From NCBI GenBank assembly GCA_000333815.1, contig CAPI01000091.1, positions 1 to 52,568 on the forward strand: a stretch of DNA of 52,568 nt, in the 5' to 3' direction. The notes beneath the pieces are model-generated. The model worked only from the letters and a program-made list of their open reading frames with translations. It was not told the DNA's origin and searched no databases. How positions within the stretch are numbered: position 1 is the stretch's first letter; each line of letters begins with the position of its first letter. The position numbers and the translations under genes are program-made. The DNA is from [Collinsella] massiliensis (GTDB taxonomy: Bacteria > Actinomycetota > Coriobacteriia > Coriobacteriales > Coriobacteriaceae). Positions 39,296 through 40,424 of this stretch are shown piece by piece.

Positions 39296-39967
39296 TTAGA
39301 GCAGCTTCCTGCGGATCTTCTTGAGGTAGTTCTTCGTGAAGCTGCGCCTATCCCCGAAGAACCGGCGGTCGGTCGCTCCGTCCGCATGCCGCTCGTAGCG
39401 CAGCGCAGCGAGCTCGATGCCGCAAACATAGTCCGCCACCTGCGCCATGTAGTAGTCCTTCGGCACGGCGTTGCGGTAGATGGCGGCGTTGCTCGCCAAA
39501 CATGTATGAATCGCCTGATGAACGGCATGTTTCACGGTTTGCTGCCCGTTGTCATAGTAAATCTTGATACGGTCATATCCCAGAAAGAACTCGATGCGAT
39601 CCCTGATGAACGACGTGAGCTCTCGTTCGATGCGCTCCGCAAGCATGTACTCACTGGAAAACTCCCGCTTTCTATATCTCAAAACCATGTAACGAAAGGG
39701 TGTTTTCTCAACGAAGATCTGAAAGCGCATCAGATAGCTCTTCCGCGTGTCCAAATCGACCTGCCCATATTGCTCGTGACCGCGGATAACCGGAGTAAAG
39801 TGAAACGTCCGCTCGACAAGGCCGGCGTCTGAAAGTGCTTGGCGATATCGGGCAATGCTTGCAGCGATGCCAATCGACTGATCGTGAAACACAAACGCGA
39901 CCAAGTAGAAATCGGAGCACGGTCCGACATCGCCCGACTCATCGATGAAAATCGAAAGCTCCTTCAT
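39296..39967 (-). CDS. DUF3800 domain protein
   Basis: A 223-residue DUF3800 protein with the hallmark N-terminus LSIFIDESGDVG. The acidic residues IYYDNGQ and the C-terminal VADYVCGIELAALRY (the family's Q-x-A-D region) are also present. The pattern suggests an RNase H-like nuclease fold, but no activity is established for the family. The gene is visibly AT-richer than its neighbours, a sign of transfer. A GAGGG sits eight bases before the ATG. It is monocistronic, with an upstream leader holding a terminator hairpin and two LexA-type boxes at the promoter. Confidence 0.85.
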   Translation of the reverse strand: MKELSIFIDESGDVGPCSDFYLVAFVFHDQSIGIAASIARYRQALSDAGLVERTFHFTPVIRGHEQYGQVDLDTRKSYLMRFQIFVEKTPFRYMVLRYRKREFSSEYMLAERIERELTSFIRDRIEFFLGYDRIKIYYDNGQQTVKHAVHQAIHTCLASNAAIYRNAVPKDYYMAQVADYVCGIELAALRYERHADGATDRRFFGDRRSFTKNYLKKIRRKLL

Positions 39968-39987
39968 AAGGGCATCCCTCTTCTAAT

Positions 39988-40013
39988 AAAAAAGCCGAGG
40001 GACACCCCCCGGC
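39988..40013 (-). terminator. Leader terminator/attenuator of the DUF3800 gene
   Basis: On the minus strand GCCG and GGG pair with CCC and CGGC (one bulge, five-base loop), followed by six T (39988-39993). It lies between the promoter and the DUF3800 ATG, so most transcripts should stop here. The CCCTC of its 3' arm could instead pair with the upstream GGAGGG (40024-40029), an antiterminator-like alternative. Conserved DUF3800 RNA motifs have been described upstream of such genes; whether this is one was not testable. Confidence 0.65.
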
Positions 40014-40049
40014 GAAGAGACAGCCCTCCTTGTGTGGAGCGCTGTTTTA

Positions 40050-40087
40050 TTTATACCACACGCCGGTTCGTCCATTCAATCATAGCA
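40050..40087 (-). promoter_or_regulatory. Promoters of the DUF3800 gene
   Basis: Two candidates on the minus strand. The first is TGCTATGAT (40079-40087), the extended -10 form used by rpmB and adhE, with box 1 of the LexA sites in its -35/spacer region. The second is TTGAAT (40074-40079), 18 bases, then TATAAA (40050-40055) preceded by TGG. Either gives a leader of about 75-105 bases containing the terminator hairpin. Confidence 0.55.
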
Positions 40088-40092
40088 AAATA

Positions 40093-40132
40093 CGAACACA
40101 TGTTCTTCATGTTAAGAGCGAACATGCGTTCT
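40093..40132. promoter_or_regulatory. Two LexA (SOS) box matches
   Basis: CGAACACATGTTCT (40093-40106) and CGAACATGCGTTCT (40119-40132). Both fit the Gram-positive/actinobacterial LexA consensus CGAAC-N4-GTTC exactly in the eight core bases, with centres 26 bases apart. They sit upstream of and across the DUF3800 promoter, between that gene and the metK operon terminator. No other CGAAC-N4-GTTC match was noticed while reading the window. Confidence 0.7.
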
Positions 40133-40136
40133 ACAT

Positions 40137-40169
40137 AAAAGAGGGGCCGTGCAAACCGCACAGCCCCTC
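40137..40169 (-). terminator. Terminator of metK-GNAT-small ORF
   Basis: GAGGGGC pairs with GCCCCTC and GTGC with GCAC (one mismatch, AAACC loop). On the minus strand it is followed by TTTT. Confidence 0.85.
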
Positions 40170-40200: not shown

Positions 40201-40416
40201 TCATTGCATCTCGACGTTTTTAAAGCTCATGCTCGAGTAGCAGCGCCCTTCATGCGATTCAAACAGTCTCAGATCGTTGCGCAGGTCATGAAGCAGCTCG
40301 TCAACAGGTCGTACGCGGCCATTCGCCACATCGGATTCTGCCTCGTCAAGAGCTTTCAACATGCTCTGCTCATAACGACGTCCCAAATCATGAGACAGCG
40401 CATCGACGTGATCCAT
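40201..40416 (-). CDS. Small antitoxin-like protein
   Basis: A 71-residue acidic protein starting MDHVDALSHDLGRRYEQSML. The segment KALDEAESDVANGRVRPVDELLHDLR has the helix pattern found in the toxin-binding part of many RelB/Phd-type antitoxins (EAExDxxxGRVxxxxELxxxLR). No toxin gene of the RelE, ParE or PIN type is adjacent. AGGGGG stands before the ATG at 40416, and the gene begins eight bases after the GNAT stop, so it is co-transcribed with it. It may be an orphan antitoxin or an unrelated small protein. The function is not known. Confidence 0.6.
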   Translation of the reverse strand: MDHVDALSHDLGRRYEQSMLKALDEAESDVANGRVRPVDELLHDLRNDLRLFESHEGRCYSSMSFKNVEMQ

Positions 40417-40424
40417 AGCGCCCC

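What the first reader, a model, noticed from the sequence alone, without database searches (positions are those of the whole stretch)
39296..40132. DUF3800 gene apparently under SOS (LexA) control with an attenuator-like leader
Seen: two exact CGAAC-N4-GTTC boxes (40093-40106, 40119-40132). The first lies in the promoter of a leftward gene with an extended -10 TGCTATGAT. An intrinsic terminator (39988-40013) follows in the 5' leader, and its arm can pair alternatively with an upstream GGAGGG. Then comes an AT-rich DUF3800 gene with FIDESGD. Known: this box is the LexA consensus in Gram-positive bacteria, and structured RNAs have been reported upstream of DUF3800 genes. Inference: a DNA-damage-induced, doubly gated (repressor plus RNA switch) gene for a putative RNase H-like nuclease, plausibly linked to defence or mobile DNA.
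Basis: partly seen in the sequence, partly recalled or inferred. Interest (0 to 1): 0.78.

Follow-up and report, generated by a model that had tools for sequence, protein, structure and literature searches.

The report
SOS-controlled nuclease gene with RNA switch
A small mobile cassette in gut bacteria related to Collinsella joins a DNA-damage-controlled promoter, a short self-terminating two-hairpin RNA and a predicted RNase H-like nuclease gene; its relatives sit inside BREX anti-phage operons, so it probably links the DNA-damage response to phage defence.

Summary
Two exact CGAAC-N4-GTTC boxes precede a leftward DUF3800 gene. The same box lies in this genome's own lexA, recA and ruvC promoters, so it is the LexA operator. 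The leader is more than an attenuator: a promoter (P2) abuts a covarying hairpin and an intrinsic terminator, which should release a ~60-nt RNA ahead of the gene. This unit precedes 74 of the 80 nearest DUF3800 genes (Coriobacteriia, Bifidobacterium, Actinomycetaceae). It matches no Rfam family but has the layout of DUF3800-XI RNA. LexA boxes are a lineage-specific addition at fixed positions over a second, upstream promoter (P1). Only the P1 transcript carries a stretch complementary to the terminator's 5' arm, suggesting read-through under SOS; that step is inferred. LexA-boxed cassettes sit almost always at BREX loci, often between the two halves of a split pglX. The window's gene is nested in that BREX clade, but its genome has no pglZ, so it is an ex-BREX cassette between priA and a GNAT gene. 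The protein is a predicted RNase HII-like nuclease. Its activity, its relation to the RNA (inhibitor, cofactor or substrate) and SOS induction are untested.

The parts
39296..39967 (-). DUF3800 gene, 223 aa, MKELSIFIDESGD...; predicted RNase HII-like nuclease
   Evidence: PF12686 above cut-off; AF2 pLDDT 90.9; RNase HII best fold match
39973..39984 (-). ribosome-binding region AGAAGAGGGATG; AGGGG-type site common in relatives
   Evidence: sequence; alignment
39988..40013 (-). intrinsic terminator: H2 GCCGGGGGGTGTCCCTCGGC (39994-40013) plus T6 (39988-39993)
   Evidence: fold; covariation in helix 2
40014..40020 (-). linker between H1 and H2 (TCTCTTC here, TCCAAG in most relatives)
40021..40044 (-). 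H1 hairpin CAGC-G-CTCC-ACACAA-GGAG-G-GCTG with a central G.G mismatch
   Evidence: covarying helix 1
39988..40058 (-). whole RNA unit (model R1, 61.5 bits), from the P2 -10 to the end of the T tract
40050..40060 (-). P2 extended -10 TGTGGTATAAA; with TTGAAT -35 at 40074-40079 (18-bp spacer)
   Evidence: -10 conserved in nearly all RNA copies, with or without LexA boxes
40061..40066 (-). CCGGCG, complementary to the terminator 5' arm CGCCGG; present only in the P1 transcript (candidate antiterminator)
   Evidence: inferred function
40079..40087 (-). P1 extended -10 TGCTATGAT, LexA-controlled promoter
   Evidence: position conserved; one-box relatives have TTGACG-N17-TATAAT around the box
40093..40105 (-). 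inner LexA box (GAACATGTGTTC on the gene strand), over the P1 -35 region
40119..40131 (-). outer LexA box (GAACGCATGTTC); in BREX relatives it lies about 24 bp before the divergent pglX-C start, a gene absent here
40137..40169 (-). intrinsic terminator of the upstream transcript, insulating the cassette
   Evidence: sequence

Best explanation
This is a self-contained, mobile cassette: a LexA-repressed promoter (P1), an internal promoter (P2), a short two-hairpin RNA ending in an intrinsic terminator, and a gene for an RNase H-like (DUF3800) nuclease. Shown by sequence: the boxes are this genome's LexA operator; the RNA unit is a conserved, covarying partner of DUF3800; LexA boxes are added in one lineage at fixed positions over P1; and the window's copy belongs to a clade embedded in BREX operons. 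Inferred: without damage, P2 makes mainly the ~60-nt RNA and little DUF3800. When DNA damage (or a phage) triggers LexA cleavage, P1 fires. Its transcript carries an extra 5' stretch that pairs with the linker and 5' arm of the terminator before the 3' arm is made, so polymerase reads through and the nuclease is made. The RNA and the protein are probably a co-adapted pair, the RNA acting as binding partner, inhibitor or substrate of the nuclease. Its usual setting suggests an inducible second line of defence attached to BREX; here the cassette has left BREX and sits between priA and a GNAT gene.
For: LexA: the same box is in the lexA (two copies), recA and ruvC promoters. Boxes lie at -73/-47 or -50/-51 from P2 in 13 RNA loci, all Coriobacteriaceae, with further cases. 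BREX loci that lack DUF3800 have no such boxes at pglX-C, so the boxes belong to the cassette. One-box relatives have TTGACG-N17-TATAAT with the box in the spacer. RNA: covariation 220 double-changed cells against 53 shuffled; R1 lies directly upstream of 74 of the 80 nearest homologues; it occurs in 52 of 150 relatives against 50 with DUF3800. Antiterminator: the P1-only stretch complements linker plus H2 5' arm better in boxed loci (mean z -1.72 against -0.16, p=1e-5; dereplicated p=0.004). BREX: brxC, pglX-N, pglX-C, pglZ and brxL around it; 11 of 13 boxed against 2 of 13 unboxed R1 genomes carry pglZ. The window gene is nested at 100/99 support in the BREX clade. Promoter modules 97% alike precede proteins only 40% alike, while RNA similarity tracks protein similarity. 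Fold: RNase HII best; carboxylates D9, E10, D139, D179 and E185 are invariant.
Against: No expression data. At equilibrium the terminator still wins in P1 transcripts (P 0.94-1.0), so read-through needs kinetic folding. The extension/target swap test is weak (p 0.05-0.09), and boxed promoters are related to one another, so the sample is small. P1 in the window has a poor -35. No biochemical proof of nuclease activity was found in the papers searched; one paper predicts an RNase H fold with a rearranged active site (PMC10910872). The window genome has no pglZ, so a BREX role cannot apply to this copy today.
Confidence: 0.62

Rival explanations
1. The RNA is an RNA antitoxin and DUF3800 is a toxin nuclease (works like a type III toxin-antitoxin pair). 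The terminator sets an excess of RNA over protein, and LexA control and extra solo RNAs tune the pair.
For: Promoter-RNA-terminator-nuclease order matches ToxIN, whose terminator precedes toxN (PMC5772629). About 20 solo or extra RNA copies keep promoter and hairpins, as anti-addiction copies would. RNA tracks protein while the promoter is exchanged separately. Mobile, patchy and defence-linked.
Against: No tandem repeat array in most loci. The protein matches DUF3800 and the RNase H fold. Solo copies may be recent decay (truncated DUF3800 genes are common). Toxicity is unknown.
Confidence: 0.3
2. Purely cis-acting leader: the two hairpins form an ordinary attenuator for DUF3800, perhaps sensing a ligand or translation, with LexA only adding a promoter.
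For: The RNA sits almost always directly before DUF3800, and its 3' part is an intrinsic terminator.
Against: H1 does not compete with H2. P2 should start right at H1, leaving no sensor upstream. Well-conserved copies occur with no gene behind them or after the stop codon. Rfam types the related DUF3800-XI as an sRNA gene.
Confidence: 0.25
3. The boxes belong to the divergent BREX gene pglX-C and are only a relic here; DUF3800 is not SOS-controlled.
For: In two-box loci the outer box lies about 24 bp before the divergent pglX-C start; the window lacks that gene.
Against: BREX loci without DUF3800 have no boxes at pglX-C. DUF3800 cassettes at the other end of BREX, far from pglX-C, still carry one box over P1 (G061, G033, G039).
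Confidence: 0.1
4. Chance boxes with no LexA function.
For: The 13-mer is not enriched genome-wide over its reversed control.
Against: Fixed positions across many genomes, the same box at lexA and recA, and 2 of 200,000 shuffles with two boxes.
Confidence: 0.03

Closest known systems
Rfam DUF3800-XI RNA (RF02975, sRNA) with its DUF3800 gene
   Same: Promoter, hairpin, linker with CCA, GC-rich terminator, RBS, DUF3800 gene; found in this slot in 10 of the 16 viral contigs DUF3800 loci scanned with Rfam; R1 scores weakly at four of them
   Different: The window RNA does not reach any Rfam model; different H1 sequence; LexA-controlled upstream promoter added; actinobacterial
Rfam Transposase-2 RNA (RF03015)
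   Same: Two hairpins directly upstream of DUF3800 in Bifidobacterium catulorum L217
   Different: Different sequence; H2 there is not followed by a T tract; not detected in the window
Type III toxin-antitoxin ToxIN
   Same: RNA gene, terminator, nuclease gene on one transcript (PMC5772629)
   Different: No repeat array in most loci; different protein family; neutralisation not shown
LexA/SOS regulon of Gram-positive bacteria
   Same: Operator identical in form to this genome's lexA, recA and ruvC boxes
   Different: Target is a leader RNA plus DUF3800 gene rather than a repair gene
BREX type 1 locus with embedded accessory genes
   Same: Relatives' cassettes lie between pglX-N and pglX-C or after brxL
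   Different: pglX is split into two genes; the window's genome has no pglZ

Membership tests
LexA/SOS regulon | operator equals the genome's own LexA box | tested here: met
   boxes at lexA (C49:14281-14320), recA and ruvC
LexA/SOS regulon | operator overlaps a promoter of the gene and is kept in orthologues | tested here: met
   fixed positions in 13 Coriobacteriaceae loci; absent from f2, f5, f7 and f10 loci apart from one-mismatch matches at other positions
LexA/SOS regulon | induction by DNA damage, LexA binding | not testable with these tools
   no expression or binding data
DUF3800 (PF12686) | profile score above the gathering cut-off | tested here: met
   30.7 bits, cut-off 21
RNase H-like nuclease | RNase H fold with conserved acidic residues | tested here: met
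   RNase HII best match (Foldseek E 4e-4; VIA Z 8.2, rmsd 3.9 over 164 residues); D9, E10, D139, D179, E185 invariant
RNase H-like nuclease | catalytic activity | not testable with these tools
   needs an enzyme assay
Rfam DUF3800-XI RNA | covariance score above the gathering threshold | tested here: not met
   no hit in the window or leaders, also at lax thresholds
Rfam Transposase-2 RNA | covariance score above the gathering threshold | tested here: not met
   met only in L217
Type III toxin-antitoxin | RNA-terminator-nuclease gene order | tested here: met
Type III toxin-antitoxin | tandem RNA repeats before the toxin | tested here: not met
   one unit in the window; two tandem units only in a few loci (L157, L158)
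Type III toxin-antitoxin | RNA neutralises a toxic nuclease | not testable with these tools
   needs co-expression assay
BREX system | pglZ and pglX present near the gene | tested here: not met
   no PglZ and no pglX-C in the window's genome; met in relatives

The most novel reading that the evidence does not exclude
A two-promoter RNA switch in which the choice of promoter sets the fate of the terminator. The housekeeping promoter yields only a nuclease-binding sRNA; the SOS promoter yields a transcript that opens the terminator and makes an RNase H-type effector. The module guards BREX and forms a new class of RNA-neutralised, DNA-damage-triggered defence.
Probability: 0.18. Interest if true: 0.86.

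Novelty: new variant of a known kind. Interest (0 to 1): 0.62.

Why it matters
As far as the papers searched here show, RNAs of the DUF3800 kind are listed in Rfam without a tested function. Here such an RNA-gene unit carries a defined inducer (LexA/SOS), a testable switch (P1 against P2 transcripts) and a recurrent defence context (split pglX of BREX), in named strains such as Collinsella intestinalis DSM 13280 and C. stercoris DSM 13279. That makes the role of DUF3800 RNAs directly testable.

Tried and rejected
Rfam hits for the window at lax thresholds (Phe_leader, sraL, CsrB): below gathering, chance. pglX-C ownership of the boxes: rejected by box-free BREX loci. Phage origin: no hit in 50,697 phage records; the one plasmid-collection hit is a 900-kb Collinsella record; distant relatives (31-40%) occur in viral contigs, with DUF3800-XI RNA. 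Clade clustering of LexA or BREX labels on the DUF3800 tree is not better than shuffles, in line with cassette swapping, so only the nesting of the window copy is used. LexA and BREX in one paper: 8 papers hold the terms, read only as titles and abstract starts. No solved structure of a sequence relative.

Full report
Check of the observation. Both CGAAC-N4-GTTC boxes exist, at 40093-40105 and 40119-40131, and are the only two in the window. A shuffled 223-bp intergenic region holds two such sites in 2 of 200,000 trials. The leftward gene 39296-39967 encodes a 223-aa DUF3800 protein (PF12686, 30.7 bits). Its GC is 53.7% against 67.9% for the window. An upstream terminator (40137-40169) closes the GNAT-side transcript, so the cassette looks like its own transcription unit.

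The box is this genome's LexA box. The genome's LexA (C49) has two such boxes just upstream, recA has CGAACAGCTGTTCG 50 bp before its start, and ruvC has one 36 bp before its start. The 13-mer as such is not enriched genome-wide over its reversed control; position, not number, carries the argument.

The leader is a conserved RNA unit. Fifty of 150 relatives have the protein. Their upstream regions, once oriented, share an extended -10 (TGGTATAAA), a hairpin H1, a linker (usually TCCAAG), a GC-rich terminator H2 with a T tract, an AGGGG-type RBS and the gene. With P2's -10 next to H1, the P2 transcript should start at H1 and end after H2, about 60 nt; the start site is inferred. A hand-set structure on 20 leaders gave 30 double-changed cells against 11 shuffled. 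A covariance model (R1) finds it in 52 of 150 relatives and directly upstream of 74 of the 80 nearest DUF3800 genes across Coriobacteriia, Bifidobacterium and Actinomycetaceae, with 220 double-changed cells against 53 shuffled (that alignment was fitted to the model). No Rfam family reaches it in the window, nor in 20 relatives' loci at the gathering threshold or seven loci at a lax threshold. Distant DUF3800 loci carry DUF3800-XI RNA in the same slot and the same layout, and one Bifidobacterium locus carries Transposase-2 RNA there. So this is an unregistered relative in kind, not a member by score.

Extra and solo copies. About 20 R1 copies have no DUF3800 behind them, some right after a DUF3800 stop codon. 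They keep 87% of H1 and 97% of H2 pairs, against 90% and 99% for the other copies (biased, since they were found with the model). Truncated DUF3800 genes are also common, so some solos are decay products.

LexA control is a lineage-specific addition. Boxes lie at -73 and -47 from P2 in seven loci, or singly at -50/-51 in six; all 13 are Coriobacteriaceae. Three records labelled Atopobiaceae or Eggerthellaceae also carry boxes at the same distance (L154, L155; L177, one mismatch). Other families show none at these positions. In one-box loci the sequence is TTGACG-N17-TATAAT with the box in the spacer, a textbook repressible promoter. In the window P1 has an extended -10 (TGCTATGAT) and a weak -35.

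A candidate antiterminator exists only in the P1 transcript. Between the P2 -35 and -10 lies CCGGCG (40061-40066), complementary to the H2 5' arm. Across loci, this P1-only stretch pairs with linker plus H2 5' arm, relative to shuffles, better in boxed loci (mean z -1.72, n=13) than in unboxed loci (-0.16, n=50; p=1e-5; dereplicated 6 against 37, p=0.004). In the simulated nascent P1 transcript it encloses H1 and occupies the terminator arm in most boxed loci. Limits: once H2 is complete it wins at equilibrium (P 0.94-1.0), the swap test is only p=0.05-0.09, and the promoters are related. This step is inference.

BREX context. In six Coriobacteriaceae genomes the cassette lies between pglX-N (profile 1-869) and pglX-C (875-1170) of a BREX operon with brxC, pglZ and brxL; more cases are in Eggerthellaceae and MAGs. 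In three Collinsella-group genomes it lies after brxL, and in one a solo RNA with a box faces pglX-C. Eleven BREX loci without a nearby DUF3800 also have split pglX genes where both halves were seen, but no LexA boxes at pglX-C, so the boxes travel with the cassette. Eleven of 13 boxed R1 genomes have pglZ against 2 of 13 unboxed ones in the family (p=0.001; genomes are related). The window's gene is nested at 100/99 among BREX-embedded copies, but its own genome has no pglZ and no pglX-C.

Modularity. Among boxed loci, promoter modules up to 97% alike precede proteins only 40% alike, while RNA similarity rises with protein similarity (rho 0.46) and promoter similarity does not (rho -0.47; 21 non-independent pairs). 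RNA and protein seem co-adapted, the promoter exchangeable.

Protein. AlphaFold2 gives pLDDT 90.9. Best matches are RNase HII (Foldseek E 4e-4, TM 0.41; VIA Z 8.2, rmsd 3.9 over 164 residues), then human RNase H2 and PIWI domains. D9, E10, D139, D179 and E185 are invariant in 26 sequences. A published AlphaFold analysis also assigns DUF3800 an RNase H fold with rearranged catalytic residues (PMC10910872). Activity is unproven.

Verdict. A LexA-controlled promoter-sRNA-terminator-DUF3800 cassette that has left BREX. The RNA-gene unit is a new variant of a known kind; its SOS control and recurrent seat inside split pglX are the surprising parts. Mechanism beyond the anatomy is inference.

Noticed in passing
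window 40201-40419 (-): Small ORF MDHVDALSHDLGRRYEQSMLKALDEAESDVANGRVRPVDELLHDLRNDL..., looks like a RelB/DinJ-type antitoxin without a toxin; the empty site in G003 (L074) holds what looks like the tail of a RelE-like toxin.
   Followed up: no
L233, L235-L244, L058-L062: pglX of BREX is encoded as two genes (N about 850 aa, C about 324 aa) in the Coriobacteriaceae loci read; the gap between them, 20 bp to 5.7 kb, holds different accessory genes in different genomes.
   Followed up: partly
L029 1340-2448: RNA plus DUF3800 flanked by roughly 100-bp direct repeats of a truncated tRNA-Ala 3' half, an att-like duplication around a 1-kb element with no integrase inside.
   Followed up: partly
L023 (G000:C117:24588): Exact LexA box CGAACATATGTTC 60 bp before a HigA-like antitoxin gene.
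   Followed up: no
L111, L112 (G032:C29, G053:C32): Clusters of two or three RNA units in opposite orientations within 500 bp, possible sites for inversion or deletion.
   Followed up: no
L115, L117, L120, L121, L125: Several contigs end within about 300 bp of an RNA copy, as expected if the unit is repeated or rearranging.
   Followed up: no
L026 (G000:C130:15974-16189): A second, short S24-like protein besides LexA in the window's genome.
   Followed up: no
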